Shown here: positions 25,963 to 46,636 of the stretch, in pieces
Layout: each line of letters starts with the position of its first letter
How positions within the stretch are numbered: position 1 is the stretch's first letter
Notes under the pieces: model-generated
The model's input: only the letters and a program-made list of their open reading frames with translations
The model's database searches: none
Told to the model about the DNA's origin: nothing
Program-made: the position numbers and the translations under genes
Assembly (NCBI GenBank): GCA_013360585.1
Contig: JABWBH010000036.1
Span: 1 to 47,927, forward strand
Source of the DNA: Phycisphaerae bacterium
Lineage (GTDB): Bacteria > Planctomycetota > Phycisphaerae > UBA1845
Reading direction: 5' to 3'
DNA: 47,927 bases

Positions 25963-25979
25963 GCGGACCGGAGGTCCGC
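25963..25979. repeat. 17-base palindrome (GCGGACC-GGA-GGTCCGC)
   Basis: This has perfect 7-base arms around a GGA loop. It lies in the 113-base gap before the GT4 gene at 26027 and is nearly repeated inside that gene at 26708-26732. Confidence 0.8.
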
Positions 25980-26026
25980 GATCCGGATTGAATCAACGAA
26001 CTTGCAATTCAGAGGGGCATCGCCCC

Positions 26027-27298
26027 GTGAGTGCGCCGTTGAAGATTTGTTTTGTGGCGCTGAACGGATACGCGGCGATCGGAGGTCGCGCCGGGACGTC
26101 GCACATCGGCGGCGCGGAGCGTCAGACGGCGCTGCTGGCGCGGGAGCTGGCGCGGCGGGGACACATGGTGTCGCTGGTGGTGCTCGATCACGGTCAGGCG
26201 GACGGAGAGGCGATCCAAGGCGTGCGTGTGTTCAAGGCGTATGCGCGGGACGCGGGGTTGCCCGGGCTGCGGTTTTTTTCGCCGCGTCTGACGGGGCTCT
26301 GGTCGGCCCTGCGGCGGGCGAGCGCGGACGTGTATTACCAGCGGATGGCGGAGCAGACGACGGGGATCGTAGCGGCGTTCTGTCGTCGTCACGGGAAGCG
26401 TTTTTTTTTCGCGTCAGCGAGCGATTACGACTGTCTTCCCGAGCTGCCGCGACTGAGGAAGCCGCGGGAGGCCGTGTTGTATCGCTACGGTCTTCGGCGG
26501 GCGGATCGGGTGCTGGTTCAGACGCGGCATCAGCGGGAAATGATGCGGACGGGGTTCGGCGTTGAGGCGGAGGTGCTGTCGAACGCGGCGGAGGATCTTG
26601 CGGACCGGAGCGTCGTGTCAGCCCCGGGGGGGGCACTTGCGAGAGACGCCGGAGAGGCGAGTGGGCGGCTCGCCGCTTCAGGATCGGACCGTGGTGCGGC
26701 GCCAGATGCTCGCGGACCGGAGGTCTGCGAGCCGAGGTTAAGCGAAGAATTCGCAGTCGGAGGCACGAAGGGTCTGCGGGTTCTGTGGATCGGACGGTAT
26801 ACGCCGGAGAAGCGGCTGGAGTGGGTGTTCGAGATCGCCGGCGCGTGTTCGAATCTGACGTTCGACATCGTCGGGGATGCGACGGGCGGGTCGCGTTATG
26901 CGGAGGATCTGAAGGCTCGTGCGAAGCGGTGCGAGAACGTGAGGCTGCTGGGCCGCGTGGCGCATGAGCAGATCGGCGCGTTGTACCGGCGGTCGGATGT
27001 GCTGCTGTGTACGAGTGAGCGCGAGGGTTTTCCGAACACGTTTCTGGAGGCGTGGAGCCTGGGCGTGCCGGTGGTGACGACGTTCGACCCGGACGGGGTG
27101 GTGGCTGAGTTCGGGCTGGGGAGGGTGGCGACGTGCGTGCCGGGGGTGATCGAGGCGCTTCAGGTGACGGCGGCGGACGGCGTGGGACGTGAGCGGATGA
27201 GAGTCTGTTGCCGGGCGTACTTCGAGCGTGAGCATCGGGTTGAGCGCGTCGTCGACCGGTTCGAGGCGCTTCTTGCCGGGACGGGGAGTGCGGTGTGA
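26027..27298 (+). CDS. Glycosyltransferase family 4 with palindrome-derived linker insertion
   Basis: This is a 423-residue GT-B transferase. The N-terminal domain holds LKICFVALNGYAAIGG, the acceptor-side loop HIGGAERQTALLARELA and RADRVLVQTRHQREMM; the C-terminal domain has RVLWIGRYTPEKRLEWVFE, FDIVGD, VRLLGRVAHEQIGALYRRSD and the donor motif EREGFPNTFLEAWSLGVPVV. Between the domains, about residues 195-245 form an unusual low-complexity insert containing the palindrome 26708-26732. I chose GTG 26027 because the upstream in-frame codons (from 25946) run through another palindrome and would encode an unrelated 27-residue extension. Adds a sugar from a nucleotide donor to the lipid-linked repeat unit. 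Overlaps the next gene by 4 bases. Confidence 0.88.
   Translation: MSAPLKICFVALNGYAAIGGRAGTSHIGGAERQTALLARELARRGHMVSLVVLDHGQADGEAIQGVRVFKAYARDAGLPGLRFFSPRLTGLWSALRRASADVYYQRMAEQTTGIVAAFCRRHGKRFFFASASDYDCLPELPRLRKPREAVLYRYGLRRADRVLVQTRHQREMMRTGFGVEAEVLSNAAEDLADRSVVSAPGGALARDAGEASGRLAASGSDRGAAPDARGPEVCEPRLSEEFAVGGTKGLRVLWIGRYTPEKRLEWVFEIAGACSNLTFDIVGDATGGSRYAEDLKARAKRCENVRLLGRVAHEQIGALYRRSDVLLCTSEREGFPNTFLEAWSLGVPVVTTFDPDGVVAEFGLGRVATCVPGVIEALQVTAADGVGRERMRVCCRAYFEREHRVERVVDRFEALLAGTGSAV
26708..26732. repeat. Palindrome inside the GT4 coding sequence
   Basis: Eleven-base arms (GCTCGCGGACC / GGTCTGCGAGC, one mismatch) flank a GGA loop. It encodes about residues 228-236 of the glycosyltransferase and shares its core with 25963-25979. 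The reading frame is kept. Confidence 0.75.
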
Positions 27299-28551
27299 CA
27301 GCGGCGCCGATCAAGACCGGTTCGGCTCGACCGGATGAAGCGGGGGCGGTTGCGCCGCTTCGGATTGCGCTGGTGATCAGCAACCTCGAATACGGAGGCG
27401 CGCAGCGACAGGTGATCGAGCTGGCGAATCATCTGGAGCGCGGCACCTTTGAGGTTCATGTGTGCTCGCTTTCACGTTACGTGCCGCTGGCGGCGGACCT
27501 CGAGGACGCGGCGGAGCGGCTTTTCGTTCTGACGAAGCGTTTCAAGTTCGATGTTTCGGTGATCTGGCGGCTGGCGGCGTGGCTGCGGCGCATCCGGGCG
27601 GACGTGGTTCACAGTTATCTTTTTGATGCGAACATCGCGGCGCGTCTTGCGGGGAGGCTGGCGGGGGTGGGGGCGGTGATCGGGTCTGAACGTAACACGG
27701 ATTATCACCTGAAGCGGCGGCAACTCTGGGCGTATTGGGCGACGCGGAGTTGCTCGGATCTGATCATTGCGAACTCGCGGGCGGGGGCGCAGTTCAGCCA
27801 GCGTGTGCTGGGGCATCCTGCGGAGCACTACCGGGTCGTTCACAACGGGGTGGACACGGTCCGGTTCCGTCCTCAGGAGAAAGCCGTGATCCGGTCGCGG
27901 CTGGGGTTGGCTGCGGAGGCGCTCGTCGTCGGCATGTTCGCGAGCTTTAAGGCGCAGAAGAATCATCCGTTGTTGCTGGAGGCGGCGCGGCGCGTGCTGA
28001 ATCGGCGGGGGGATGTGAAGTTTCTGCTGGTGGGGGATGAACTTCACGGCGGGATGCACGGGTCGGATGCGTACAAGGTGCGGGTTTTCGGGATGATCGA
28101 GGCCCTGGGATTGTCGAGGGCGTGCGTTCTGGCGGGGAACCGAGACGACGTGGAGGACGTTTACTGCGCGTGTGACGTGACGGTACTGCCGTCGCTTTTT
28201 GAGGGGACGCCGAACGTGCTGCTGGAGTCGATGTCGTGCGGGGTTCCGGTGGTGGCGACGGACGTGGCGGACAACGCGGCGATCGCGCCGGACGGACGGG
28301 TCGGGTTCATTGTTCCGCTGGGGGATGCGGGGGTGCTGGCGGATCGACTGCTGAGGTTGATCGAAGACGGGGAATTGCGTCGGCGTTGCGGGGCGGCGGC
28401 GCGGGCGTGGGTCGAGTCGGAGTTTTCGACGGCGCGGTTGGCGGAGAAGACGGGGGCCGTCTACCGGGAAGCGTTGGCGTTGCGAGCACGTCGCGGCGTC
28501 GAGGGGACGCGGGCGAGTGCGTCGGGGTCGAGCGGTGCAGTGCGAAGATGA
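27295..28551 (+). CDS. Glycosyltransferase family 4
   Basis: This is a 418-residue GT-B enzyme beginning at GTG 27295 within the stop of the preceding GT4 gene. N-terminal domain: LRIALVISNLEYGGAQRQV, VVHSYLFDANIAARLAG, SDLIIANSRAGAQF, VVHNGVDTVRFRP. C-terminal domain: VGMFASFKAQKNHPLLLEA, FLLVGDELHGG, DDVEDVYCACDVTVLPS and the donor-binding LFEGTPNVLLESMSCGVPVV. It resembles enzymes extending repeat units of surface polysaccharides. The tail after LALRARRG is low complexity (G/A/S-rich). Next start overlaps by ATGA. Donor and linkage unknown. Confidence 0.92.
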   Translation: MTAAPIKTGSARPDEAGAVAPLRIALVISNLEYGGAQRQVIELANHLERGTFEVHVCSLSRYVPLAADLEDAAERLFVLTKRFKFDVSVIWRLAAWLRRIRADVVHSYLFDANIAARLAGRLAGVGAVIGSERNTDYHLKRRQLWAYWATRSCSDLIIANSRAGAQFSQRVLGHPAEHYRVVHNGVDTVRFRPQEKAVIRSRLGLAAEALVVGMFASFKAQKNHPLLLEAARRVLNRRGDVKFLLVGDELHGGMHGSDAYKVRVFGMIEALGLSRACVLAGNRDDVEDVYCACDVTVLPSLFEGTPNVLLESMSCGVPVVATDVADNAAIAPDGRVGFIVPLGDAGVLADRLLRLIEDGELRRRCGAAARAWVESEFSTARLAEKTGAVYREALALRARRGVEGTRASASGSSGAVRR

Positions 28552-29846
28552 TCGCGCGACGGGCGGAACAACTCGAATCGCGGGGGCGTGAGGCGGCGGG
28601 TTCGACGTCTGCGGCAGGTGCGGCGTTTGCGGTGCGGCGGTTTCCGTATCCCTACCGGGCGATGCTGGCGATCTGCTCGGATCTGGACGAGACGCCGGAT
28701 GCGCGAACGTATGAGCAGATCATGACGTACCTCAACACCGAGCGTGATCTGGGTTGGGGTCAGGGCGTCGGACTGGAGGTCGGGAACACGATCTACTTCG
28801 ACATGCCAGCCTCGCAGTTCGCATACTGGAACACGGACGATCGCGGGCGGGCGATGACGCGGGAGCTGATCCACAGCGGACACGTGGACTGCCTGCACTC
28901 TTACGGGGACGGAGCAACGACGCGGGAACATGCAAGGCGGGCGCTGGACGAACTCGCGCGATATGACCTGCGGATCGAGGTCTGGGTGGATCATGCACAA
29001 GCCGTGACGAACTTCGGGGCGGATATCATGCAGGGTTGCGGCGACGTGGCGGGCGCGTCGGCGTATCACGCGGACCTGACCTGCGACCACGGGGTGCAAT
29101 ACGTGTGGCGCGGGCGTGTGACGAGCGTGATCGGACAGGACCGTCCGCACAGCCTTCGCGGCGTCTTCGACGGGAACGATCCGGCGGGGTCGCTGCGGAC
29201 GTTGGGGAAGGAGGCGGTGAAGCACGTTCTCGGGCGTGCGGGGCAGGCGAAGTACGCGATGCACGGTCCGAATGTGCTGGTGCGTCCGGCGCAGCTGCGC
29301 GACGGGCGGGCGGTCTTCGAATTCATCCGATGCAATCCTTATTGCGGGGGGGTTGATCGTGCGGCGACGGCCGCGGGCATCGCGGAGGTGCTGACGGAGC
29401 GGTTTCTTTCACGGCTGGTCGAGCGTGAGGGCGCGGCGATCGTTTACACGCATCTGGGGAAGGTGCGGCGGCCGGACGAGCCTTTTGAGGCGGCGACACG
29501 GGCGGCGTTCGAGCGGCTGGCGCGTTATGAACGCGCGGGGAAGATTCTCGTGACGACGACCCGGCGGCTGCTGGGATATCGATCGGCGCGGGAGGCGGCG
29601 CGAGCGTGTTGGTGCGAGGACGCGGCGGATGTTTTTCGAGTCGGCGCCGCGCCGGGCGGGCCTCGGCTTGCCCGGGCGGACTGGCAGGGGTTGACCTTAA
29701 CGCCCGTGCAGAGTCGAGCAGCGGGCGCGGGGGTGACGATCGAGGTGGAGGGCGCGGGACGGTTTGCGGGGCGGGTGAATCCGCCGGATGAGCGTGGGCA
29801 GACGAGCGTGATGATCCCGTGGGAGCGGCTGCGATATCCGAGGTGA
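28548..29846 (+). CDS. Polysaccharide-deacetylase-like protein
   Basis: From ATG 28548, overlapping the stop of the GT4 gene, the product has 432 residues. The N-terminal part resembles a (beta/alpha) deacetylase barrel: FPYPYRAMLAICSDLDET places two acidic residues where NodB-type enzymes have the TFDD motif, and ELIHSGHVDCLHSYGDG supplies candidate metal histidines, with further VWVDHAQAVTNFG and AIVYTHLGKVRRPDEPF. The C-terminal 100 residues form a separate beta-rich piece (VTIEVEGAGRFAGRV). No signal peptide. If active it would deacetylate a sugar in the repeat unit or precursor; the match is by motif only and distant. It could also be a related barrel with another activity. Confidence 0.65.
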   Translation: MIARRAEQLESRGREAAGSTSAAGAAFAVRRFPYPYRAMLAICSDLDETPDARTYEQIMTYLNTERDLGWGQGVGLEVGNTIYFDMPASQFAYWNTDDRGRAMTRELIHSGHVDCLHSYGDGATTREHARRALDELARYDLRIEVWVDHAQAVTNFGADIMQGCGDVAGASAYHADLTCDHGVQYVWRGRVTSVIGQDRPHSLRGVFDGNDPAGSLRTLGKEAVKHVLGRAGQAKYAMHGPNVLVRPAQLRDGRAVFEFIRCNPYCGGVDRAATAAGIAEVLTERFLSRLVEREGAAIVYTHLGKVRRPDEPFEAATRAAFERLARYERAGKILVTTTRRLLGYRSAREAARACWCEDAADVFRVGAAPGGPRLARADWQGLTLTPVQSRAAGAGVTIEVEGAGRFAGRVNPPDERGQTSVMIPWERLRYPR

Positions 29847-31165
29847 AGCGGCAAGTTGCGGACGGCGCTGCGGGTTCCGAAGCCTGTCCGAACCTGGCGG
29901 GTCAGCGACCCGTCCCGCCGGCGGGCGCCGAGTCGGGCGTGGGTGTGCGCGTGCGCGGGTGGTTGCTGCGGCGCGTCCTGCGTGCGGCGCTGCTCGTGTA
30001 TCTGGGATGTGTCAGCGTGTTGAGCCGGGCGGTGCGGCGCAAGGCGCGCGTGGACGGTCGGGTGCGCGTGCTGGTGACGGGCAAGTTTCCGTCGAACACG
30101 TGGGTGGGGGCGTTTCTGCGTCCGATGGCGGCGGTTGGGCGATGTGAAGGGGTCTGGGCGGTGTCGGCGTATCCGATTCCTGAGCCGCCGGGGGTTCATG
30201 CGGTGTACGCGCCGCGGTGGCTGACGCGCGTGTGCGGACAGGCCGCAGCGAGGCTGCTGATGATGGCGTGGTTGGCGCTGCGGTTGCGTCCGGATGTGAT
30301 CGGGGGGTTTCACCTGCTGATCAACGGACTTGCGGCGGGATTGCTGGCGCGGCTGGTGGGGGCGCGAGCGTTTTACGTGTCGGTGGGCGGACCGACGGAT
30401 TGCGTGGACGGAGGTTTGCACGGAGAGAACGCGGTGTTCCGGCGGATCGTGCGTGCGGACGCGGTGATCGAGCGTCGCCTGCTTTCGGCGATCGGGCGGT
30501 TTGACGCGGTGGTGACGATGGGTCGGAAGGCGGCGGCGTTCTACCGGGGACGGGGGCTTGCGGACGTTTTTCACGTGATTCCCGGGGCGATCGACGCGGC
30601 GCGTTTTTCACCCGGGTCGGTGGTGAAGGAGTTCGACCTGATTCTGGTGGGGCGGCTGGTCGAGGTGAAGCGGATCGACGTTTTCCTTGAGGCGGTGGGG
30701 ATTGCGGCGAAGCGTCGGGGGACGCTGTCGGCCGTGGTCGTGGGCGACGGGCCGCTTCGGGCATCGCTTCAGGAGCGTGCGGAAGCGCTGGGGTTGGCGG
30801 ACCGGGTGCGCTTTGTCGGGCAGCAGGCGGCGGTGGAGGACTGGTACCGTCGGTCGCGTGTGTTTGTGCTGACGTCGGATTCCGAGGGTTTGTCGCTGGC
30901 GATGCTGGAGGCGATGGCGTGCGGGCTTCCGGTGGTGGTGTCGGACGTGGGCGATCTGGGCGACATGGTCGAGCGCGGGGTGACGGGTGAGCTGGTTTCG
31001 CGGCGGGACGTTGGGGCGTTCGCGGACGCTTTCGTGGACGTGCTTTCAGATGAGCGGCGATGGCGCGGCATGTCTGAGGCGGCGCAGTCGCTGGCGCGAC
31101 GTGCGACGGTCGAGGCGTCGACGCCTCGCTGGGAGAAGGTCATCTGCGGGAGCGTAGAACGTTGA
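29843..31165 (+). CDS. Glycosyltransferase family 4
   Basis: From GTG 29843, which overlaps the stop of the deacetylase-like gene (GTGA), the product has 440 residues. It has a basic and hydrophobic region before the first strand (GWLLRRVLRAALLVYLGCVSVLS), so it may be membrane associated, then RVRVLVTGKFPSNTWVGAFLRPM. The donor domain shows FDLILVGRLVEVKRIDVFLEAV, VVVGDGPLRASLQ, VRFVGQQAAVEDWYRRSRVFVLTS and SEGLSLAMLEAMACGLPVV with the conserved glutamates. A GTG at 29819 would overlap further and is less likely. Third GT4 of the operon. Confidence 0.9.
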   Translation: MKRQVADGAAGSEACPNLAGQRPVPPAGAESGVGVRVRGWLLRRVLRAALLVYLGCVSVLSRAVRRKARVDGRVRVLVTGKFPSNTWVGAFLRPMAAVGRCEGVWAVSAYPIPEPPGVHAVYAPRWLTRVCGQAAARLLMMAWLALRLRPDVIGGFHLLINGLAAGLLARLVGARAFYVSVGGPTDCVDGGLHGENAVFRRIVRADAVIERRLLSAIGRFDAVVTMGRKAAAFYRGRGLADVFHVIPGAIDAARFSPGSVVKEFDLILVGRLVEVKRIDVFLEAVGIAAKRRGTLSAVVVGDGPLRASLQERAEALGLADRVRFVGQQAAVEDWYRRSRVFVLTSDSEGLSLAMLEAMACGLPVVVSDVGDLGDMVERGVTGELVSRRDVGAFADAFVDVLSDERRWRGMSEAAQSLARRATVEASTPRWEKVICGSVER

Positions 31166-31956
31166 CGTCGCCAACGAACGTGACGACAGGAGCAGCGGGG
31201 ACCGGCGAACGCCCTTCGGCGGCGGCGCGCTGCCGCGCGCTGCGCGACCGGATGTATCCGAAGGAGATGCGGCCGCACCAGATTCTCACGCGGCGCGTCC
31301 TTGAAGCAGCGAGGCAAGGCGCGGTGATTCTGGATTGCGGGTGCGGGCGGGACGCGGGCTGGCTGAAGCGTCTTGCGCCGTCGTTCGGGTTCGCGGTGGG
31401 GTTTGACTTCGAGATCGACCCGGCGGCTTCGGACGCGGCGACGCCGCTGGTTCAGGCGGACGCGCATGCCGCGCCGTTGTGTGATGCGTCGGTGGACGTG
31501 ATCGTGACGAAGAACACGGTGGAGCATTTCGCGGAGCCTGCGGTGGTGTACCGCGAGTTTTGCCGGGTGTTGCGTCCGGGCGGGCGTTTGTTCGTTCTGA
31601 CGGTGAATCAGTGGTTCCCGCCGATCCTGGCGGCGCGCTGGATGCCGCACTCGCTGCGTCAGCGGATCAACGCACGGGCGACGGACTCCGCGCCGGAGGA
31701 CACGTTTCCGGTGTACTACCGGGCGAACACGACAGCGGCGCTGACCGCGCTGGGGCGCGAGGCGGGCTTTCACGTGGAGGGGCTGGAATACCTCTCGAAC
31801 CACCCGGAGTATTTCATGTTCTCGCCGCTGGCGTACCGGTGCTGGGCCGTGATCGAGCGGGCGCTGCTGCGTCGGCGGATGTTCGCCGGGCTTCGGCATT
31901 TCATGCTGGCCACCTACCGCAAGCCCGGGACCGGGGCGTCGGGAAGCGGAACATGA
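31162..31956 (+). CDS. Class I SAM-dependent methyltransferase
   Basis: This is a 264-residue methyltransferase beginning with TTG 31162, which overlaps the stop of the GT4 gene (TTGA). Motif I reads VILDCGCGRDAGWLKRL (about 56-72), followed by VGFDFEIDPAA, LVQADAHAAPL, VDVIVTKNTVEHF and RVLRPGGRLFVLTVN, the pattern of the Methyltransf_11 group. The C-terminal part (YYRANTTAALTALGREAGF, YFMFSPLAYRCW) is shared with methyltransferases of polysaccharide clusters. Likely methylates a sugar or the lipid-linked intermediate. The next gene begins in its stop codon (ATGA). Confidence 0.88.
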   Translation: MTSPTNVTTGAAGTGERPSAAARCRALRDRMYPKEMRPHQILTRRVLEAARQGAVILDCGCGRDAGWLKRLAPSFGFAVGFDFEIDPAASDAATPLVQADAHAAPLCDASVDVIVTKNTVEHFAEPAVVYREFCRVLRPGGRLFVLTVNQWFPPILAARWMPHSLRQRINARATDSAPEDTFPVYYRANTTAALTALGREAGFHVEGLEYLSNHPEYFMFSPLAYRCWAVIERALLRRRMFAGLRHFMLATYRKPGTGASGSGT

Positions 31957-34762: not shown

Positions 34763-34845
34763 GCGGCGGACCGACGTGGCGGCAGGCTCGTCGGCGCCGT
34801 TTCCCGTCGGCGCGAAAAAAATCCTGCAAAACTCCGTGGAAAACC

Positions 34846-37818: not shown

Positions 37819-37847
37819 CGCCCCGGGGTGTCGGGCGGAGGCGCCGG

Positions 37848-38843: not shown

Positions 38844-39541
38844 CCGGCGGTGCTGCCAGTCTGGCGTCGCTTTCAGGCCGGTTCCTCGTGTTGGACGGAC
38901 CGGACGGGTGCGGCAAGTCCACGCAGCAGGCGATGCTGGCGGAGCGGCTGATCGACGCGGGTCTGGAAGTCGTCTGCTGCCGCGATCCCGGGGGGACGGC
39001 GATCGGCGACCGCATCCGCTCGGTACTGCTGGATTACGATCTGGACGCGATGAACGTCCGCTGCGAGACGCTGCTTTTCATGGCGTCGCGGGCGCAGCTT
39101 GTCGCGGAGGTGATTCAGCCGGCGCTTGCCTCGGGGAAGGTGGTTCTTTGCGACCGCTTCGTCAGTTCGACCTGCGCGTATCAGGGCGCGGCCGGGTTTG
39201 ATCCGCGCAAGGTGATCGATCTCGCGTGGCACGCGGTGGGGAATCTCTGGCCTTTCCTGACGATCCTCATCGACGTCGACACCGACGAGGCGTTTCGCCG
39301 GATCGGTCGTCCGCAGGGACGGTTGAAGCCCGCGTACCGCGAGGCGGGACAGACGGTGCTCTTCAGCGACGCGGTGCATGACGCGATGGAGTCGCGCTCG
39401 CCGGAGTATCACCGCCGGGTGCGCGAGTTTTTCCTGGAGCTACCGGAGTATTATCCTCGGCCGGTCGTCGTTGTGGACGGGACGGGATCGGCGGAAGCGG
39501 TCGGCGAGCGCGTGTTCGGGGCGGTCCGCGATCATGCTTGA
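38840..39541 (+). CDS. tmk: Thymidylate kinase
   Basis: The 233-residue product carries the dTMP kinase order: P-loop VLDGPDGCGKSTQQAML (about 17-33), the substrate-site motif CCRDPGGTAIGDRIR (DPGG in place of the common EPGG), LLFMASRAQLV and the DR-loop VLCDRFVSSTCAYQG. It phosphorylates dTMP to dTDP for DNA synthesis. Begins at ATG 38840 in the stop of lipA (ATGA) and its last bases overlap holB by 8. tmk next to holB is a common bacterial arrangement. Confidence 0.93.
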   Translation: MTGGAASLASLSGRFLVLDGPDGCGKSTQQAMLAERLIDAGLEVVCCRDPGGTAIGDRIRSVLLDYDLDAMNVRCETLLFMASRAQLVAEVIQPALASGKVVLCDRFVSSTCAYQGAAGFDPRKVIDLAWHAVGNLWPFLTILIDVDTDEAFRRIGRPQGRLKPAYREAGQTVLFSDAVHDAMESRSPEYHRRVREFFLELPEYYPRPVVVVDGTGSAEAVGERVFGAVRDHA

Positions 39542-40706
39542 GTCCGTGCGGCATCAATCCGGTGCTCAGCGGCACCTTCAGCGGGCGCTGTCCGCGCGGC
39601 GCGTTCCGCACGCCTACCTTTTTCACGGACCGGAGGGCGTCGGGCGGGAGGCGCTCGCCCGGGCGTTCGCGCAGATTCTGCTTTGTCCGGCGGGGTCGCC
39701 CCGCCGCGTCACGGAGGCCGACGCCGCTGACCTCGGGCTGCCGGAGGTTTTCGCCGCGTGCGGTCGCTGCGCGGAGTGTCGCCTCGTCGAGAGCGACACA
39801 CACCCGGATCTTCACGTCGTCCACCGCTTTCTTAACCGGTTTCATGAGGAGGCGCGGGTGCGCGATCTGAAGGCCGCGCAGATCGGGGTGGACGTGATCC
39901 GCCGGTTTTTCATCGACGAGGTGGGGCGACGTCCGGTCCGCGGGCGGGCGAAGGTCTTCATCCTGCGCGACGCCCACCGCCTCAACCCTCAGGCGGAGAA
40001 CGCCCTGCTCAAGACGCTTGAGGAGCCGCCGCCGGACACGTTCATCATTCTGATTACGTCGTCCGTGGAGGAACTGCTGTCGACGACGCGGTCCCGGTCA
40101 CAGGCGGTGGCGTTCTCCGCGCTGCCGACCGACTTCATCTTCGCGGAGCTTCGACGCCGCCTCGGCGACCTGCCCGAGCCGCGGGCGGCGTGGTACGCGG
40201 GGCACTCGGGGGGCAGCCTCGGCCGGGCGCTCGAACTGATCGAGGAAAACGCGTTCGATCTGAGCACGTCGTTCATTGCGGGCTGGGCGAAGATGCCGGA
40301 GAACTTCGCGGACCTCGAGCCGGCGCGCTGGCAGAAGGCGATCGAGGGGCTGTCCGCGCTCTACCGCAGGCGCGATCCGGAGTTGTCGGAGACGGAGTCG
40401 CAGCGGATCGGCTTGCGCCTGCTCCTGTCCTTAAGCGCCGGAGTCTTCGGCGAGGCGCTGCGCGTCGGCAGCGGAGCTTCGGACTCGGGCACCGCGTCGC
40501 TTCTGACGGGCGGTTCCCCGTCGGACGCCGCGCGCCGGATCGCCGAGCGTCTCGATGCGGAGGACGTGTGCGCCGTCATCGACCGCTTCCGCCGTGCGGA
40601 GACGGCGATCGACCGCAATACGAACATCCCGCTGGCGATCGAAGCGATGCTGTATGACGTGGCGGCCCTGATGCGCGGCGAAAGTCCGGTGGAAGTTCTG
40701 TCATGA
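39534..40706 (+). CDS. holB: DNA polymerase III delta' subunit
   Basis: The 390-residue AAA+ clamp-loader subunit begins at ATG 39534, inside the 3' end of tmk. It has HAYLFHGPEGVGREALARAFA, a zinc module with C51, C76, C79 and C82 (CGRCAEC) followed by THPDLHVV, DEVGRRPVRGRAKVFIL, AENALLKTLEEPPPDT and the arginine-finger-like TTRSRSQAVAF. The P-loop has Arg where catalytic subunits have Lys (GVGRE), so it likely does not hydrolyse ATP, as is usual for delta'. The SRC motif reads SRS. Residues after 250 are a loosely conserved helical domain with an S/G-rich patch. In the clamp loader it opens and loads the beta clamp together with delta and DnaX. Confidence 0.87.
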   Translation: MLESVRHQSGAQRHLQRALSARRVPHAYLFHGPEGVGREALARAFAQILLCPAGSPRRVTEADAADLGLPEVFAACGRCAECRLVESDTHPDLHVVHRFLNRFHEEARVRDLKAAQIGVDVIRRFFIDEVGRRPVRGRAKVFILRDAHRLNPQAENALLKTLEEPPPDTFIILITSSVEELLSTTRSRSQAVAFSALPTDFIFAELRRRLGDLPEPRAAWYAGHSGGSLGRALELIEENAFDLSTSFIAGWAKMPENFADLEPARWQKAIEGLSALYRRRDPELSETESQRIGLRLLLSLSAGVFGEALRVGSGASDSGTASLLTGGSPSDAARRIAERLDAEDVCAVIDRFRRAETAIDRNTNIPLAIEAMLYDVAALMRGESPVEVLS

Positions 40707-41305
40707 GCGTTGCGGCGCCCCGGAATCCGACCGAGGCCCAGAGCGCGTTCCTGGTTCTCCGGTACGTCTGGAGCCTGCCCGCCAAGCCGACCCGGGAGCA
40801 CTGGGAGCACGTGCTCCGGATGAGCGAGCCTTTTGTCGGCAAGGTCGAATTGCAGGGACAGAAAAGCCAGGAAAGCGCGGACCGCATCCTCTCCCTGGTT
40901 GCGGCCGTGCGAGGCGACGCCTTCCGCGAACTGGGGTTTCCGCGTGAAGCCGCGGAGGCGTACCGGACGGCGTACCTCATCAAACCGATCGGCGGGTTCG
41001 CAGGGTATTACAGTCAATTGGTGCTCGATCACGCCTTTGACGATCACTACGAGACGGCATTGGCGGCGCTGGACGCATCAGCGGAGTCGATGCGCACGAC
41101 GCCGTGGCATCGTAAAGCGCTGGGCTGGGCGATCTTGATGATGAAGCGTCCGGTTCAGACGCTGAAGGAAACGCTCCCGCACCTCCGTGCGGATCCGAAG
41201 CGCCGCGAAGTCCTGTTGCAGCGGCTTCGTCATCGGGCAGGCACGGGGCAGGCTGAATTGCCGGACGGAGCCGAGAAGGACCGCCGCGCGGCGGGGAACG
41301 CGTGA
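40703..41305 (+). CDS. Hypothetical helical (TPR-like) protein
   Basis: This is a 200-residue protein starting in the stop codon of holB (ATGA), so co-translated with the replication genes. It is alpha-helical, with a pattern of paired helices (FRELGFPREAAEAYRTAYLI, YETALAALDASAESM) suggestive of tetratricopeptide repeats but without the full consensus, and a charged tail. No signal or membrane segment. I do not recognise a family. Possible roles are protein binding or regulation; nothing else can be said from sequence. Confidence 0.6.
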   Translation: MSVAAPRNPTEAQSAFLVLRYVWSLPAKPTREHWEHVLRMSEPFVGKVELQGQKSQESADRILSLVAAVRGDAFRELGFPREAAEAYRTAYLIKPIGGFAGYYSQLVLDHAFDDHYETALAALDASAESMRTTPWHRKALGWAILMMKRPVQTLKETLPHLRADPKRREVLLQRLRHRAGTGQAELPDGAEKDRRAAGNA

Positions 41306-41450
41306 CCGGCTTGGCGCGGCGCGCAGTCAGGTGGATACTTCGGCAGCCTCGCGCGTCGCGGGTCCGCAGGGCGTGCTCGGACGGACGCTGCAAGGGGCAG
41401 GAGCAGATTCGATGTCATCAACTTGCGAGTTCATCCGTCGGGGGAGAAAC

Positions 41451-42746
41451 ATGATTGCGGCAGGCGCGGGCGCGCTGGCCGCCTTGTGTGCATGCGCGGC
41501 GACAACCCTGGCGCAGGATGTTGCTCCGCCCGCCAACGCGCTTACCGCCGCGGAGCGCGCCGCGGGGTGGAGGCTTCTTTTTGACGGGGCGACGCCGCAG
41601 GGGTGGCGCGGGTACAAGAAGCCCGGGTTTCCCGAGAAGGGCTGGGCGGTGGAGGACGGGGCGCTGACCGTGCAGGCGGGCGGCGGCGGGGGCGACCTGA
41701 TCACGACGGAGGAGTTCGGCGATTTCGAGCTGTCGATCGAGTGGCGCGTCACGGACAAGGCCAACAGCGGGATCATGTTCCGCGTCGCCGAGAAACATGA
41801 CGCGACCTGGCAGACCGGTCCGGAGATCCAGATTTTCGACGACGCCGGTCACGGCGCGAAACCGACGGACATGCACTCGGCCGGAGCCTTGTACGATCTT
41901 CAGGCCCCGCCGGAGAACAAGACGCTGCGTCCGGTCGGGGAGTTCAATCACTCGCGGATTCTTCTGCGCGAGGGACTCCTCCAGCACTTTCTCAACGGCG
42001 TGAAGATCATCGAGTGCCGCACGGACACCCCGCAGTGGCGGGAGCGGATCGCCGCCAGCAAGTTCAAGTCGTACGAGGGCTTCGGCGTCCTCCCGCGCGG
42101 GCACATCGCCCTCCAGGATCACGGCAACACCGTCTCGTTCCGCAACATCAAGATCCGCGACTTCGCCGCGCCGATGCCCGGGCAGACCGCGCTGTTTAAC
42201 GGCAAGGACCTGTCCGGCTGGAAGGCCGTCCTCCCCGACGGCGGAAAACTCGAAGACGTCTGGTCGGTGCAGGACGGCGTCATCGTGTGCAAGGGTAACC
42301 CCGTCGGCTACATCCGGACGGAGAAGGATTACACGAACTTCGTGCTCAAGCTGGAGTGGCGCTTCAGCCCGGTGACGAAGCAGGCGGGCAACAGCGGCGT
42401 GCTGCTGCGCATGCAGGCGCCGGACAAGGTCTGGCCGAAATCGGTCGAGGCCCAGCTTCAAAGCAGCAACGCGGGAGATTTCTGGAACATCGACGAATTC
42501 CCGATGACGACGGTCGCGGAGCGCCTGAACGGCCGCAACACGCGGAAGACGCATTTCGCCGAGCGTCCGATCGGAGAGTGGAACGAGTACGAGATCATCG
42601 TCGATCACGGGCGCGTGACGCTCAACGTCAACGGCGAGACGCTCAACGAGGCGTGGGACGTGCAGGAGATCCCCGGGAAGATCGGCCTGCAATCCGAAGG
42701 CGCGGAGATTCACTTCCGCAACATCCGCCTCGCACCGATCGACTAA
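41451..42746 (+). CDS. Secreted tandem DUF1080 (3-keto-disaccharide hydrolase-like) protein
   Basis: From ATG 41451 (GGGGAGA 4 bases upstream) the 431-residue product starts with a signal peptide (MIAAGAGALAALCACAATTLAQ, cleavage after Ala/Gln near residue 22). It holds two DUF1080 beta-sandwich domains: about 40-225 (GWRLLFDGATPQGWRGY, WAVEDGALTVQ, GDFELSIEWRVTDKANSGIMFRV, HIALQDHGNTVSFRNIKIR) and about 233-430 (TALFNGKDLSGWKAV, WSVQDGVIVCKG, YTNFVLKLEWRFSP, NSGVLLRM, IHFRNIRLAPID). This family, expanded in Planctomycetes, acts on 3-keto-glycosides outside the cytoplasm. An ATG at 41412 would place the signal internally. Activity is inferred from the family. Confidence 0.88.
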   Translation: MIAAGAGALAALCACAATTLAQDVAPPANALTAAERAAGWRLLFDGATPQGWRGYKKPGFPEKGWAVEDGALTVQAGGGGGDLITTEEFGDFELSIEWRVTDKANSGIMFRVAEKHDATWQTGPEIQIFDDAGHGAKPTDMHSAGALYDLQAPPENKTLRPVGEFNHSRILLREGLLQHFLNGVKIIECRTDTPQWRERIAASKFKSYEGFGVLPRGHIALQDHGNTVSFRNIKIRDFAAPMPGQTALFNGKDLSGWKAVLPDGGKLEDVWSVQDGVIVCKGNPVGYIRTEKDYTNFVLKLEWRFSPVTKQAGNSGVLLRMQAPDKVWPKSVEAQLQSSNAGDFWNIDEFPMTTVAERLNGRNTRKTHFAERPIGEWNEYEIIVDHGRVTLNVNGETLNEAWDVQEIPGKIGLQSEGAEIHFRNIRLAPID

Positions 42747-42796
42747 ATGAATCCACACAAAAGGGAAACCGGCACGTCCTGGAACCCGATGATCCC

Positions 42797-42826
42797 GAGC
42801 CGCGGGCTTTAGCCCGCGCGAACGCT
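42797..42826. repeat. Palindromic repeat, copy 1 (GCGGGCTTTAGCCCGC)
   Basis: This 30-base unit (GAGCCGCGGGCTTTAGCCCGCG and following AACGCT) differs in one base from 46607-46636. The whole gap 42747-43158 holds this, further palindromes and a response-regulator relic, but no intact gene. Confidence 0.75.
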
Positions 42827-42893
42827 TGATCCTGGGGGTGGGGTTCCCTTCATCGAGGACTTCTTTAGTCCGGGGGATTGCGGGCCTGGGATC

Positions 42894-42931
42894 GCGGATC
42901 TTCGATCCGCACGTGCGAAGCGGAGCTTCGC
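42894..42931. repeat. Two adjacent 7-3-7 palindromes
   Basis: GCGGATC-TTC-GATCCGC (42894-42910) and GCGAAGC-GGA-GCTTCGC (42915-42931) are both perfect. The arms differ in sequence but the size is the same as elsewhere in the window. Confidence 0.75.
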
Positions 42932-42969
42932 GATCCTGGCGCCTGCGCAACGCCGTCATGACTCGCGCA

Positions 42970-43090
42970 TCAGGCCTGCGCCTCTTCAAGCACGTCGTCG
43001 AGCAGCGCGAGCAGCGTTCGCCCGTCGAAAGGTTTCGTGAGGTAGGGATTCGCGCCGACGGTGCGAGCAAGGGTATCCAGGTGGCGGCGG
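42970..43090 (-). pseudogene. Relic of a response-regulator receiver domain (C-terminus)
   Basis: On the - strand an open stretch of about 40 codons ends with VGANPYLTKPFDGRTLLALL, DDVLEEAQA and a stop at 42970. This is the last part of a CheY-like receiver domain: the KPF with the conserved lysine and the final helix. Upstream in the same frame there is a stop at about 43095, no start codon and no phospho-acceptor aspartate, so only a fragment remains. It lies just downstream of the ABC permease on the same strand. Confidence 0.6.
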
Positions 43091-43158
43091 AAGGCGCGGT
43101 GGACCCCCGGTCAGGCGGGCGGATCGGTCCTTGTGCCCCGCGCAGGCAACGTGGCGGA

Positions 43159-44670
43159 TCAGGCGTGCGGCGCGGCTGCGACCGGCGACGCCGCGGCCCG
43201 GTTCCCCAGGCCTGACAGCAACAGCAGCAGCGCCGCGACCGCGCCTTGCGCGATCAGACCCGGTATAAGCGCCGTCCGATCGGAGGACGACCACGCGATC
43301 TTGATCGTCCCGAAGGGCGACGCTCCCGCCAGCCACGTTCCGCTCGTGCGCTGCAGCGCCGCCCGACCGGCGTCGAAAGCCGGCGGGAACATCCAGATCA
43401 GCATGAGAATCAGGATCGTCATCCACAGCGCCGGACTGCGCCGCCGGCGCTCGAGGATCGACAATGCCGTCATCGTCACGCAGGCAAAGAGGCATGCCAG
43501 AAACGTCGCTGACCACGCCCGCAGCGCGGCCTGGTTGAACGTCGTCTCCGGAAGGCTCCAAGTGTATTCGTCGATCATCGGCCTCCAGACATCGACGCCC
43601 AGCAGCGCCGAGACGCCACAGATCAGCACCGGAACCAGAATCACCAGCATCGCCAGCGGTGGAAACCGGTCGCTCCAGTCACGCAGGCGCGTCCCCTGCC
43701 GGGCGATGTTGCGCAGGATCACCGCGTTACGCAAGGGAATAAACGCCAGCAGCATTGACGCGCCCAGACTCACCAGCCAGTGAATCAGCGCCTCGGGCAC
43801 ATCGGGGAGGACGTTCGCGAACGCCCGCGTCTGCGCCACCTGCTGATACGCGCGGATGCCCACGGTCGACGCCGCCAGCCACATCAGAAGCAGCACCGTC
43901 CCGCGCAACGCATTGATCGCCGGCAGATCAGGTCGACGATACCGGGCGCACGCGGCGTTCAGCCAGAACAGCGCGAACACGAGGTTCGTCGCCGCCACCA
44001 GCGCGATCGCTGCGGGTCCGGGTGAGCCCTGTCCCAGCATCACCCACACGGCCAGCGACGAACCGTAAACGCCGAACAACAGCGCCATCCCCGGCACGAA
44101 CACGAAAAGAAGCTGCGCCGAGAACCCCAGCCCGATCAGCGGTCCCACCGGGCTGACCGGTTTGCCGACGCCCACGCCCCAGAAGATCGTCAACGACCAG
44201 ATCATCACCGCACCCGTGAGGAGCAGGGCGTTGCCGCCGAACCAGGACTTCGCCGGCGCCTGAGCGATCAACCCCAGCGCATACCCCAGCAGCACGTTCA
44301 GACCGAAAAGCAGCAGCGCCTGAAGCGGTCCGCCGAACAAGTACCCCGTCACCACGCTGGTGTTCGACATCGGCGAGAGGCGATGCGACTCGATCATCCG
44401 CGACTGAAAATCCCGGAACAGCGCCCGGTAGATCATGTTCGATCCGACGAGGATCAGGATGAATCCCTGCGAAATCGCCACGGTCTTCAACGCGCCGTCG
44501 GCGATGTCCGCCCACGTCAGGCGCGAAGACGTCAATCGGCGTGCCACCGCCATCGCGAAACCGGCGATCGCCACGTACGCCACCGCGATCGCCGCGAAAC
44601 GACGCGGTCCGCCCTGCAGGTGTCCCTGCACGTAAATCAGCGGCGCCGGCGACTGAAACGGTTCTCGCAT
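43159..44670 (-). CDS. ABC-2 type transporter membrane protein
   Basis: The 503-residue protein has about 11-12 hydrophobic segments (for example AVAYVAIAGFAMAVARRL, LLLFGLNVLLGYALGLIA, ALLLTGAVMIWSLTIFWGV, LLLMWLAASTVGIRAY, LAMLVILVPVLICGVSALL) with a long cytoplasmic stretch after the first helix, including the RALFRDFQSRMIESHRLSPMS loop common in ABC-2 permeases. It would form the membrane part of an exporter with the ATPase gene at 45038-45973, the next gene upstream on the same strand. Substrate is unknown; ABC-2 systems of this type often move lipids, polymers or peptides, or act in gliding. No accessory protein is nearby. Confidence 0.85.
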   Translation of the reverse strand: MREPFQSPAPLIYVQGHLQGGPRRFAAIAVAYVAIAGFAMAVARRLTSSRLTWADIADGALKTVAISQGFILILVGSNMIYRALFRDFQSRMIESHRLSPMSNTSVVTGYLFGGPLQALLLFGLNVLLGYALGLIAQAPAKSWFGGNALLLTGAVMIWSLTIFWGVGVGKPVSPVGPLIGLGFSAQLLFVFVPGMALLFGVYGSSLAVWVMLGQGSPGPAAIALVAATNLVFALFWLNAACARYRRPDLPAINALRGTVLLLMWLAASTVGIRAYQQVAQTRAFANVLPDVPEALIHWLVSLGASMLLAFIPLRNAVILRNIARQGTRLRDWSDRFPPLAMLVILVPVLICGVSALLGVDVWRPMIDEYTWSLPETTFNQAALRAWSATFLACLFACVTMTALSILERRRRSPALWMTILILMLIWMFPPAFDAGRAALQRTSGTWLAGASPFGTIKIAWSSSDRTALIPGLIAQGAVAALLLLLSGLGNRAAASPVAAAPHA

Positions 44671-44683
44671 TCTCCGCTCTCCA

Positions 44684-44744
44684 CGGACCTCCGGTCCGCA
44701 CGCGCATCCCCTGGATCACCCCGGATCGCGGACCTGCGGTCCGC
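44684..44744. repeat. Two GGACC-type palindromes upstream of the permease
   Basis: CGGACC-TCC-GGTCCG (44684-44698) and GCGGACC-TGC-GGTCCGC (44728-44744). They lie between the ABC permease (starts 44670) and the ATPase. The 367-base gap 44671-45037 otherwise contains a degenerate direct repeat (44780-44880) and a longer palindrome at 44979-45010. Confidence 0.7.
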
Positions 44745-44779
44745 ACACTCCAACGCTCCGCGCTGATCTCGTAAAACGA

Positions 44780-44880
44780 GGTCTCAAAACCGAACCACGC
44801 CCGCCCTGGACGTCGCGCAGCGAGGTTAAGGGTCAGGAACCCTTCTGGCTCCCTCCGCTCCGAGAGGGTTGAACCCGCGT
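44780..44880 (+). repeat. Degenerate direct repeat, left copy (flanks ABC ATPase gene)
   Basis: The run of words CGAACC, CGCCCGCC, GACGTCGCGCAGC, AAGG/GAGG, CTTCT, CTCCG and AACCCGCGTC matches 46014-46110 in order and direction. It lies just downstream of the ATPase gene (45038-45973), while the other copy lies just upstream. Confidence 0.55.
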
Positions 44881-44978
44881 CCAACCCGGCAATACAGGAT
44901 ACCAGAGTCTATCCCGGACCCGATCGATCGTACTCTGCAAGATGACCACGTCGGACGAAACTCCCCGGAACCCGAGGC

Positions 44979-45010
44979 TCCGCGCGACCTGAAGGTCGAC
45001 CTGAAGGTCG
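44979..45010. repeat. Nested palindrome (CGCGACCT..AGGTCGCG)
   Basis: CGCGACCT and AGGTCGCG arms close a longer symmetric unit with a central GGTCGACC. Position immediately 3' of the ATPase stop. Confidence 0.55.
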
Positions 45011-45037
45011 CGGCTCGCTTTGCGATGCGGCGAAGCG

Positions 45038-45973
45038 CTAATCCACCTGCCGCAACCCCGAGCGCAGGTACGCTTCCTCGAGACCTTCACGCAACGGATG
45101 AAACGACGACACCCGCAAACCCTCGCGCACCAGTTCCGCCAGCAACGCCGCCGCCGCCTCGTCGCCATCGTGATATTCGAACGTCACCGCGCCGTCGGTT
45201 CCGCGCACGTCCGTGATCTCCGGCCACGCCGCCAACCGGTCAGCGCAGCCCTCCACGCCGCCGACGCACCGGATCGCGTAGCGCCGCCGCCCCTCGGTGT
45301 CCCCGTGCAGCGCGTGTGTCGGACCGAAGCGGATCAACCGGCCGTGCTCGAGGATCGCGATGTGCGTCGAGACGGCCTCGAGGTCCGTCAGAATGTGCGA
45401 CGACACGATCATCGCACATCCCTGGTTCCGCAGACTGGCGAGGACGCCGCGCAACTGCACTCGCCCCGCCGGGTCCAGCCCGGTCAGCGGCTCGTCCAGC
45501 AGCAGCACGTGCGGGTTGGGCAGGAACGTCCGCGCCAGCGTCACGCGCTGCCTCATCCCGCGCGACAACTGACCAATGCGCACGTCGCGCTTGTCCTCCA
45601 GCCAGAGATGCTCCAGCCAGAAGTCGATGCGCTCCTCGGCCTCCTGACGGTCGAGCTGGTACGAAAGGGCGACAAACCGCAGAAACGTCACCAGACTGAT
45701 GTCCTCGTACGCCGGCGGCGAATCCGGGGCGAAACCCACTTCGCGGCGAACGTCCACGTCTTTGCCGAGCACCGGTTTGTTCATCACCCGCGCTTCGCCG
45801 CGCGTCGGGCTCATCAGACCGGCGAGCACGCGCATCAGCGTGGTCTTGCCCGCGCCGTTGGGCCCGACCAGACCCAGAAGCTGCCCGCCTTCCAGTGAAA
45901 ACGACACGTCGTTGACCGCCACCAGCGGCCCGTACTCGACGCGAACCTGATCCGCCGTCAGCAGCGTGGACAT
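45038..45973 (-). CDS. ABC transporter ATP-binding protein
   Basis: The 311-residue ATPase has LLGLVGPNGAGKTTLMRVL (Walker A, about 34-52), the signature LSRGMRQRVTLAR, Walker B HVLLLDEPLTGLDP and the H-loop VSSHILTDLEAV. Residues after about 220 form a C-terminal regulatory-type extension (YAIRCVGGVEGCADRLAAW), common in ABC-2 exporter ATPases. It powers the membrane protein encoded next downstream (43159-44670); together they form an ABC-2 exporter of unknown substrate. Diverged direct repeats flank the gene on both sides (44780-44880 and 46014-46110). Confidence 0.93.
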   Translation of the reverse strand: MSTLLTADQVRVEYGPLVAVNDVSFSLEGGQLLGLVGPNGAGKTTLMRVLAGLMSPTRGEARVMNKPVLGKDVDVRREVGFAPDSPPAYEDISLVTFLRFVALSYQLDRQEAEERIDFWLEHLWLEDKRDVRIGQLSRGMRQRVTLARTFLPNPHVLLLDEPLTGLDPAGRVQLRGVLASLRNQGCAMIVSSHILTDLEAVSTHIAILEHGRLIRFGPTHALHGDTEGRRRYAIRCVGGVEGCADRLAAWPEITDVRGTDGAVTFEYHDGDEAAAALLAELVREGLRVSSFHPLREGLEEAYLRSGLRQVD

Positions 45974-46013
45974 CGGCTCATTCCACCGCGCGTTCCGAAC
46001 CTGCTCGCACCCG

Positions 46014-46110
46014 CAAAAAACGAACCGCGCCCGCCGCCCTTGACGTCGCGCAGCAAGGTCAAGAATGCGGTCTTCTTTCGCGCTTCTCCGAAGGTTTTGA
46101 AACCGCGTCT
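46014..46110 (+). repeat. Degenerate direct repeat, right copy
   Basis: This is the same ordered word series as 44780-44880 (CGAACCGCGCCCGCC, GACGTCGCGCAGC, AAGGTCAAG, CTTCTCCG, GAAACCGCGTC). It ends about 100 bases before the tRNA-Ser gene. Confidence 0.55.
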
Positions 46111-46211
46111 ATGTCGCCCCGCGCGCCGCAGAGGCGCTGGGGAGGCGCTTACGACGCCCGCGCCTCCATCTTACGAGACCACTCTGAAGAATGCGGGGCG
46201 CCGAAACGGCA

Positions 46212-46298
46212 CGGAGAGGGGGGGATTCGAACCCCCGGTGCAGTTGCCCGCACACTGGTTTTCGAAACCAGCCCGATCAGCCGCTCCGGCACCTCTCC
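46212..46298 (-). tRNA. tRNA-Ser(CGA)
   Basis: On the - strand the 87-base sequence folds as a type II tRNA. The 7-base acceptor stem is GGAGAGG (46298-46292) with CCTCTCC (46219-46213) and discriminator G. The anticodon stem CTGGT/ACCAG holds the loop TTCGAAA with anticodon CGA (codon UCG), a long variable arm follows, and the T arm contains GTTCGAATC. CCA is not encoded. The long variable arm with a CGA anticodon identifies serine. Confidence 0.95.
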
Positions 46299-46341
46299 TT
46301 GAACGCCATTCCGGTCGGCCTCGCCGGTGACCGGGCGGCGG

Positions 46342-46370
46342 ATTCTGCGACGCCCGGACTCTGAAGTCAA
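46342..46370 (-). promoter_or_regulatory. Sigma70-like promoter of the tRNA-Ser gene
   Basis: On the - strand TTGACT (46370-46365), a 17-base spacer and CAGAAT (46347-46342). Transcription would start near 46335, about 37 bases before the tRNA. Confidence 0.5.
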
Positions 46371-46392
46371 GCCGCCGCGCCGCCCCCGTGGC

Positions 46393-46573
46393 TTCAGCAC
46401 ACCTGAGTCTCCATCTGACTCCGGTTGCAGGGTGTTGGAATCGCATGAACTTACCTATCGCGATCCTGCGGGGAGGGAGCGACGGGAGGTGTTGTCCCCG
46501 GGACGATCTTCCGGCGGTCTTAGCCCCGGAGAATCATCTGAAAGTCTCGGCCCCGGAGGATCATCCGGAAGTC
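46393..46573 (+). repeat. Dispersed repeat, block A, copy 2
   Basis: This holds the same ordered words as 8320-8482 but on the + strand, with three 27-base units (ATCATCCGGAAGTC and related) instead of two. In this copy a spacer of about 100 bases with the palindrome 46607-46636 separates it from block B. Confidence 0.8.
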
Positions 46574-46606
46574 TAAATCAAGATTCACGAATGTGGAGCG
46601 CCCTCC

Positions 46607-46636
46607 GAGCCGCGGGCTTCAGCCCGCGCGAACGCT
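46607..46636. repeat. Palindromic repeat, copy 2 (GCGGGCTTCAGCCCGC)
   Basis: 29 of 30 bases match 42797-42826; the difference (TTC against TTT) is in the loop. Confidence 0.75.

What the first reader, a model, noticed from the sequence alone, without database searches (positions are those of the whole stretch)
25963..46636. Family of short hairpins with compensating changes in the arms
At least six sites share a 7-base arm, 3-base loop, 7-base arm layout: GCGGACC (25963, 44728, 26712), GCGGATC (42894), GCGAAGC (42915), CGGACC (44684) and the related GCGGGCT (42797, 46607). Arm sequences differ but pairing is kept, so the hairpin, not the sequence, seems to be selected. They stand mostly in gaps. 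They could be REP-like elements moved by a tyrosine transposase or act as RNA hairpins.
Basis: seen in the sequence. Interest (0 to 1): 0.55.

Follow-up and report, generated by a model that had tools for sequence, protein, structure and literature searches.

The report
Dispersed hairpin repeats from mini-transposons
The short hairpins are real, but they are pieces of small transposon-like repeats scattered between genes of an uncultured planctomycete and close relatives, a known kind of genome repeat rather than a new system.

Summary
Hairpins exist at all eight cited places, though 42797 and 46607 have 2- or 4-base loops and 44684 has 6-base arms. Generic 7-3-7 palindromes are not enriched in the window (10; shuffles 6.8 ± 2.7). 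One sequence family is: GCGGACCTNCGGTCCGC has 39 exact places in the 4.24 Mb genome, 0 for the reversed control. Six cited sites are this "family A", in fuller copies a ~113-bp element with imperfect ~27-bp inverted ends starting TA, a GGATC tag and two facing hairpins. Exact cores were found in 5 of 60 genomes, many copies only in 3 of 4 of the genus. The other two sites belong to different ~100-bp repeats ("family B") that fit insertion into CTAG; one is nested in a 553-bp MITE with an 8-bp target duplication. The "compensating changes" are mostly different hairpin classes plus drift: 0 of 7 stem pairs co-vary in 22 copies. Y1 transposases exist, but no family-A hairpin was found within 1 kb of 11 genus loci read. 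98 of 101 sites lie outside called genes, with an orientation bias between tandem genes (33:7 groups). Best reading: REPIN- or ERIC/RUP-like non-autonomous repeats, enzyme unidentified. New member of a known kind.

The parts
25942..26014 (-). family-A element: hairpin 25963-25979 with GGATC tag (25980-25984 read on the minus strand), second, imperfect hairpin 25942-25958, left-end motif to about 26014
   Evidence: gap between a sulfatase and a glycosyltransferase
26588..26794 (-). stretch of a glycosyltransferase gene holding a family-A hairpin at 26712-26728; 117 bp (39 codons) longer than the same stretch in G003
42743..42868 (.). insert with a family-B type hairpin (CGCGGGC 42801-42807, GCCCGCG 42812-42818); about 122 bp longer than G001, where the site reads CTAG; ends CTAAATG...TTTAG; a second copy (95% over 131 bp) lies at G001:C13
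42889..42936 (.). family-A head-to-head hairpin pair: GGATC-GCGGATCTTCGATCCGC (42894-42910) and GCGAAGCGGAGCTTCGC-GATCC (42915-42931)
   Evidence: orthologue in G001
44683..44744 (+). two family-A hairpins in tandem, 44684-44698 (6-bp stem) and 44728-44744 (GGATC tag)
46394..46401 (.). left copy of the 8-bp target duplication TCAGCACA
46402..46954 (.). 553-bp MITE with inverted ends CCTGAGTCTC...GAGACTCAGG, absent from the G001 orthologue
46573..46672 (+). family-B element nested in the MITE, carrying the 46607 hairpin (CGCGGGC 46611-46617, GCCCGCG 46622-46628); 14 own-genome copies at 96-100% among those read
46955..46962 (.). right copy of the target duplication TCAGCACA

Best explanation
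The hairpins are the stablest parts of non-autonomous, transposon-derived palindromic repeats, of at least two unrelated families. Family A (25963, 26712, 42894/42915, 44684, 44728) is an old, partly decayed repeat whose fuller copies are ~113 bp: imperfect ~27-bp inverted ends starting with TA, a GGATC-tagged 7-3-7 hairpin and a second hairpin facing it. It spread within one lineage by an enzyme acting in trans, and copies persist outside genes, many shortly after a gene's 3' end. Family B (46607; a related insert at 42797) is a younger ~100-bp repeat whose ends and empty sites fit insertion at TA within CTAG, as in Tc1/mariner/IS630-type transposition. Shown: dispersal, shared flanks, presence/absence at orthologous sites, position outside genes. 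Inferred: mobilisation in trans, and that any role is at the level of transcribed 3' hairpins. Unknown: which enzyme moved them.
For: 39 exact places against 0 in the reversed control. The left-end motif, searched by itself in the four genomes of the genus, occurs in the same three (18, 12 and 8 places; 0 in G002; control 0). 22-copy alignment and one fold (DNA z -4.0). TA exactly at the left terminus in 15 of 51 left ends, against 0-3 at each of 19 other offsets (copies not independent). Left end within 7 mismatches at 30 of 108 hairpin sites against 2 of 3000 random stretches; second tagged hairpin at 26 of 108 against 68 of 3000. G003 is 117 bp shorter at 26712. G001 is about 122 bp shorter at 42743-42868, its site reading CTAG, and lacks the 553-bp MITE. 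Four other MITE copies aligned lack the 46573-46672 insert; one reads CTAG there, one TTAG. Family B: 16 places of its 29-base right end within 3 mismatches, control 0. 3 of 101 family-A sites in called genes, where the coding fraction of the stretches used for the gene model is 0.80.
Against: No transposase was tied to either family. Six near-identical family-B copies lack the left CTAAAT end, which a simple TA cut-and-paste does not explain. At most 46 of 108 family-A hairpins have a recognisable left end even at 9 mismatches (16 of 3000 by chance), and some stand as singletons or tandem clusters, which fits REP units better than a MITE. No unambiguous empty site with its TA was found for family A. 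Among 22 copies chosen by their left end, hairpin 1 is the best-conserved block (93%; second hairpin region 80%, right end 68%), which decay alone need not give; but 8 of 30 copies with missing or displaced hairpins had been dropped before. Insertion versus deletion was not polarised.
Confidence: 0.8

Rival explanations
1. Family A is a true REP/REPIN: single-stranded hairpin units with a 5' guide tag (GGATC), copied by a Y1 (TnpAREP/RAYT) transposase, now lost or unrecognised.
For: Tag plus hairpin anatomy and head-to-head pairs. 58 of 60 genomes searched carry Y1. The same 22-base tag and hairpin recurs in a Beijerinckiaceae MAG in the opposite (tail-to-tail) arrangement, as if it were a module of its own. 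Sub-families with alternative stem residues are described for REPs (PMC3733652, passages).
Against: No family-A hairpin (degenerate pattern) within 1 kb in the 11 genus Y1 loci read (11 of the 17 Y1 matches, two of them near contig ends). G002 has 4 Y1 matches and neither an exact family-A core nor the left end. The tag is neither GTAG nor CGTC, nor clearly the CnGA foot reported for class 3. Inverted outer ends with TA are not described for REPs in the passages seen.
Confidence: 0.35
2. Family A is kept by selection as an RNA hairpin at mRNA 3' ends (stability or processing), in one orientation.
For: In gaps between tandem genes the TCC-loop strand is antisense at 50 of 62 sites; 33 against 7 in independent groups, 1 mixed, p = 4e-5. 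Hairpin 1 is better conserved than its neighbours (with the caveat above). ERIC effects on mRNA depend on orientation (PMC2229807, passages).
Against: 0 of 7 pairs with double changes in 22 copies. Single changes break the pair at 24 of 38 sites. An apparent excess of G-U on the mRNA strand vanished against flanks in a larger set, G>A 27 and C>T 18 in 129 sites, Fisher p 0.84. The orthologous 44684 hairpin has broken pairs in G001 and G003. The bias could also come from insertion or replication polarity.
Confidence: 0.2
3. Chance palindromes in GC-rich DNA.
For: Generic 7-3-7 count in the window is within shuffle range; six of the ten perfect ones are not cited sites.
Against: 39 against 0 for the specific sequence, lineage-restricted, with conserved flanks.
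Confidence: 0.01

Closest known systems
ERIC / RUP / Correia (NEMIS) type bacterial MITEs, Tc1/mariner/IS630-like
   Same: Under 200 bp, palindromic, inverted ends, terminal 5'-TA-3', no protein; RUP is 107 bp, intergenic, and thought to be moved by IS630-Spn1 (PMC2229807, passages). Preference of IS630 for TA in CTAG: title of Tenzen and Ohtsubo 1991 seen in a reference list (PMC2170065).
   Different: Different sequence; family A has imperfect ends and a GGATC-tagged hairpin core; these repeats are GC-rich; no IS630-type transposase was searched for.
REP sequences / REPINs with RAYT (TnpAREP) transposases
   Same: 5-13 bp stems, short loops, unpaired 5' tag, head-to-head dimers, between unidirectional and convergent genes, sub-families with alternative stem residues (PMC3733652, passages; REPIN definition PMC3116915, passages).
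   Different: Tag GGATC instead of GTAG or CGTC; inverted outer ends with TA; not found next to the Y1 genes read.
Class 3 TnpA-Y1 of Planctomycetes and Acidobacteria and their CnGA-footed hairpins
   Same: Same phylum, high-copy hairpins (PMC6006769, passages).
   Different: Foot not matched; no family-A hairpin next to the Y1 loci read. Whether P0001 is class 3 was not tested.
MITEs with an 8-bp target duplication (the 46402-46954 element)
   Same: Inverted ends, exact 8-bp duplications at 4 of 11 copies.
   Different: Parent insertion-sequence family not identified.

Membership tests
REP / REPIN | short stem-loop in many intergenic copies | tested here: met
REP / REPIN | GTAG or CGTC tag at the hairpin foot | tested here: not met
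   GGATC at 62 of 108 sites, GGACC at 18
REP / REPIN | same hairpins flank a Y1 (RAYT) gene | tested here: not met
   none within 1 kb in 11 Y1 loci of 4 genomes, two of them cut short by contig ends; 6 further Y1 matches not read
REP / REPIN | inverted doublets | tested here: met
   26 of 108 sites with a tagged second hairpin downstream, control 68 of 3000; most sites have none recognisable
REP / REPIN | cleavage of the unit by its Y1 enzyme | not testable with these tools
   needs a biochemical assay
Tc1/mariner/IS630-type MITE (ERIC, RUP, Correia) | terminal inverted repeats | tested here: met
   family A ~27 bp imperfect (ends compared by eye); family B CTAAATC/GATTTAG
Tc1/mariner/IS630-type MITE (ERIC, RUP, Correia) | TA target duplication | tested here: inconclusive
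   family A: TA at 15 of 51 left termini, no clean empty site; family B: G001 site CTAG at 42743 and one CTAG-bearing MITE copy of four, but six copies lack the left end
Tc1/mariner/IS630-type MITE (ERIC, RUP, Correia) | partner transposase with matching ends in the genome | not tested
Structured RNA under selection | compensatory substitutions | tested here: not met
   0 of 7 pairs in 22 copies
Structured RNA of a known Rfam family | match above the gathering score | tested here: not met
   only a tRNA in the window

The most novel reading that the evidence does not exclude
The GGATC-tagged 17-base hairpin is a module of its own, shared by two phyla (head-to-head in planctomycetes, tail-to-tail in a Beijerinckiaceae MAG), recognised by a yet unnamed class of transposase, and in the planctomycete genus it is framed by TA-ended inverted repeats and kept in one orientation after genes as an mRNA 3' hairpin: a type between REPINs and ERIC-like MITEs.
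Probability: 0.12. Interest if true: 0.5.

Novelty: new member of a known kind. Interest (0 to 1): 0.3.

Why it matters
It gives a defined, lineage-restricted REPIN/MITE-like family in Phycisphaerae-type planctomycetes, with occupied and unoccupied orthologous sites that let its mobility be tested. It also shows how alternative stem sequences of REP-like units can look like RNA covariation to a reader of one window. The orientation bias after genes is the one feature a specialist would want explained.

Tried and rejected
Chance palindromes: rejected by the genome-wide count, although the window-level 7-3-7 count is not enriched. RNA covariation: rejected for family A (RNAalifold on the same alignment found 1 of 14 pairs with a double change, outside the 7-3-7 hairpin). 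A test on 28 sites chosen by tag, outer three stem pairs and the AC after them did show matching of the inner arms (65 of 84 inner cells paired in 21 distinct sequences, shuffle mean 50, 0 of 10000 as high), which I read as hairpin classes rather than substitutions within a class. Of 45 two-change sites, 12 have both changes at partner positions and 7 of these form a standard pair; most of the 7 are the GCGGAGC/GCTCCGC class, one is 42894. G-U excess on the mRNA strand: looked real (19 against 9, 11 against 2), then failed against flanks with 129 sites. Intrinsic terminators: 4 found, 3.2 expected, none at the hairpins in 42700-46700; 25963 and 26712 were not scanned. Phage origin of the 46500-46760 repeat: no match. 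Y1 genes in the other held loci: none found, with a home-made profile that also missed the diverged Y1 domain in the alaS loci L236/L237, so this is a weak negative. A precise junction for family B in G003 at L040 4991-5260 stayed unresolved. Dropped before counting: of 38 left-end places 30 had loci, and 8 of these 30 were left out of alignment A1 because the hairpin was missing or displaced.

Papers: passages only were seen of PMC3733652, PMC6006769, PMC2170065, PMC3116915 and PMC2229807; all others only as search listings. I make no claim that the family is unpublished beyond those searches.
Full report
Where it is. The window is contig C70 of a 4.24 Mb, 84-contig, 97% complete genome held without a name. 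Its held genus mates G001 and G003 carry contigs whose numbers and hit positions agree with records named Planctomycetota bacterium BroJett003 and Phycisphaerae bacterium Bin_14R (identity inferred from those positions). The organism is therefore most likely a planctomycete close to Phycisphaerae.

Check of the observation. All eight cited places hold a hairpin, with the corrections given in the observation check. The specific sequence behaves otherwise: GCGGACCTNCGGTCCGC has 39 exact places in the genome, 0 for the pattern read backwards. Among 60 genomes (own included) exact copies were found in 5: own 39, G001 32, G003 13, one other genus of the family 2, one genome of the order 1; G002 of the same genus has none.

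Family A. Oriented copies share more than the hairpin. Upstream lies GGATC (62 of 108 sites) or GGACC (18 of 108) and, in a part of the copies (30 of 108 within 7 mismatches, 2 of 3000 in random stretches), a left end TAGTGTCCYGAGTTGCARRTTCGTTGC. Downstream, in 26 of 108 (68 of 3000 by chance), lies a second tagged hairpin facing the first (GCGGAGC-AGA-GCTCCGC or GCGAAGC-GGA-GCTTCGC, then GATCC or GCTCC), and in fuller copies a right end resembling the left end inverted. The left-end motif, searched on its own in the four genomes of the genus, occurs 18, 12 and 8 times in G000, G001 and G003, 0 in G002, control 0: the three genomes that carry many hairpins. An alignment of 22 copies (of 30 read, of 38 places) gives a ~113-bp consensus. 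One copy folds as three main hairpins with a DNA z-score of -4.0. At the exact left terminus TA stands in 15 of 51 ends, against 0-3 at each of 19 other offsets; the right-end set shows TA at its terminus in 11 of 50, but that set includes left ends read backwards. At 26712 the hairpin lies inside a glycosyltransferase gene, in a stretch 117 bp (39 codons) longer than in G003. The pair 42894/42915 is present in G001, where two stem bases, one loop base and one tag base differ and two stem pairs are T-G. In G001 the 44684 hairpin has a broken pair and 44728 a T-G pair; in G003 the 44684 hairpin is broken and the 44728 stretch is replaced by other sequence.

Compensating changes. They are real between hairpin classes: GCGGACC, GCGAAGC and GCGGAGC arms are components or sub-types of the repeat. 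Sites chosen by tag, outer three stem pairs and following AC have matching inner arms (65 of 84 inner cells in 21 distinct sequences; 0 of 10000 shuffles reach this). Within the main class they are not seen: 0 of 7 pairs has a double change in 22 copies, and single changes break the pair at 24 of 38 sites. The best single case is 42894, where G001 shows a T-G pair and the window a T-A pair.

Family B and the MITE. The 46607 hairpin sits in a ~100-bp repeat, CTAAATC...GATTTAG. Its 29-base right end has 16 places within 3 mismatches in the own genome and 0 in the control; 14 of the own-genome copies read are 96-100% identical over the matched part. In the window it lies inside a 553-bp MITE (46402-46954) with an exact 8-bp duplication TCAGCACA. 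Exact 8-bp duplications flank 4 of the 11 copies of this MITE that the script paired, one more is approximate, and two of the 11 are probably orthologues. G001 lacks the window's MITE. Four other MITE copies aligned show the stretch without family B; one reads CTAG there, one TTAG. The 42797 hairpin belongs to an insert by which the window is about 122 bp longer than G001, where the site reads CTAG. Both fit insertion at TA within CTAG. Six near-identical family-B copies that start at CAAGATTC or AAGATTC without the CTAAAT end remain unexplained.

Transposases. Y1_Tnp is found in 58 of 60 genomes and twice in the own genome. P0001 (150 aa) scores 54.5 bits against the IS200/IS605 model (cut-off 55) and shows no match to the REP-associated model at E 0.001. 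I read the surroundings of 11 of the genus's 17 Y1 matches with a degenerate family-A pattern: none has such a hairpin within 1 kb, but two (L133, L134) lie within about 0.3 kb of a contig end. The nearest hairpins are 2.2 kb from one gene (L131) and about 6.6 kb from the Y1 domain in L034. By eye, several of the stand-alone genes lie among other palindromes such as GCCCCGG(N)AGGGGC and CCACGGGT...ACCCGTGG. A home-made profile found no Y1 frame in the other held loci, but it also missed the alaS copy.

Position and orientation. With a simple codon-usage gene caller (17 stretches, 352 kb, coding fraction 0.80), 3 of 101 distinct family-A sites fall in genes. Between tandem genes the TCC-loop strand is antisense at 50 of 62. 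After merging clusters and orthologues 33 groups are antisense, 7 sense and 1 mixed, p = 4e-5. Between convergent genes 15 of 23 are in sense with the nearer gene; 8 sites lie between divergent genes and 5 lacked a called neighbour on one side. The caller is home-made and untested against an annotation. An early hint that substitutions keep G-U pairs on the mRNA strand did not survive a larger comparison with flanks.

Outside the genus. A scan of one genome for each of 84,980 species for the 22-base pattern GGATCGCGGACCTNCGGTCCGC found 36 stretches, from three genomes: BroJett003 (21), Bin_14R (7) and a Beijerinckiaceae MAG (8) (records very near the window's genome may be left out there). In the MAG a strict pattern shows it as a tail-to-tail pair in 5 of 8 loci, 4 of them with 10 bases between the hairpins. 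The sharing may be transfer, convergence or binning error; I could not decide.

What it is. The evidence fits non-autonomous palindromic mobile repeats. Family A shares the tag, hairpin and dimer features of REPs and REPINs (PMC3733652, PMC3116915; passages) but fails the tag test and, as far as read, the Y1-neighbour test. It shares length, inverted ends, terminal TA and intergenic position with ERIC, RUP and Correia elements (PMC2229807; passages), but has no demonstrated partner.

Noticed in passing
L034:7692-11798 (G000:C77, about 147.7-151.8 kb): The only alanyl-tRNA synthetase match of the genome (PF01411, three segments of one frame) is one long reading frame (1369 aa from its Met) that contains an HVH-bearing Y1 transposase domain in frame (PF01797, residues 604-678, E 3e-7) and several stretches that look like translated hairpin repeats. 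Its C-terminus appears frame-shifted against G001 and G002, which lack the Y1 insert; G003 has a different insert at the same place (by eye). Assembly error not excluded.
   Followed up: partly
L138:3315-7670 (G019:C21): A second Y1 domain in frame inside a host gene in another genus: MmeI-like restriction-modification protein, Y1 between methyltransferase and target-recognition domains.
   Followed up: partly
window 8118-8477: A second, diverged 360-bp copy of the CCTGAGT...ACTCAGG MITE, without an exact 8-bp duplication.
   Followed up: no
L162, L165-L169 (G000): Six near-identical family-B copies share a left end at CAAGATTC or AAGATTC without the CTAAAT terminus, in different surroundings; unexplained.
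   Followed up: partly
L070, L078, L079, L088, L098 (Beijerinckiaceae MAG FW106-10_bin.28): The same GGATC-tagged hairpin in tail-to-tail doublets in an alphaproteobacterial MAG.
   Followed up: partly
L086, L003, L042: Tandem arrays of family-A half units such as GGATCGCAGACTTCGGATTGCGGACCTCGGATCGCGGACC, and hairpins 30-45 bp apart.
   Followed up: no
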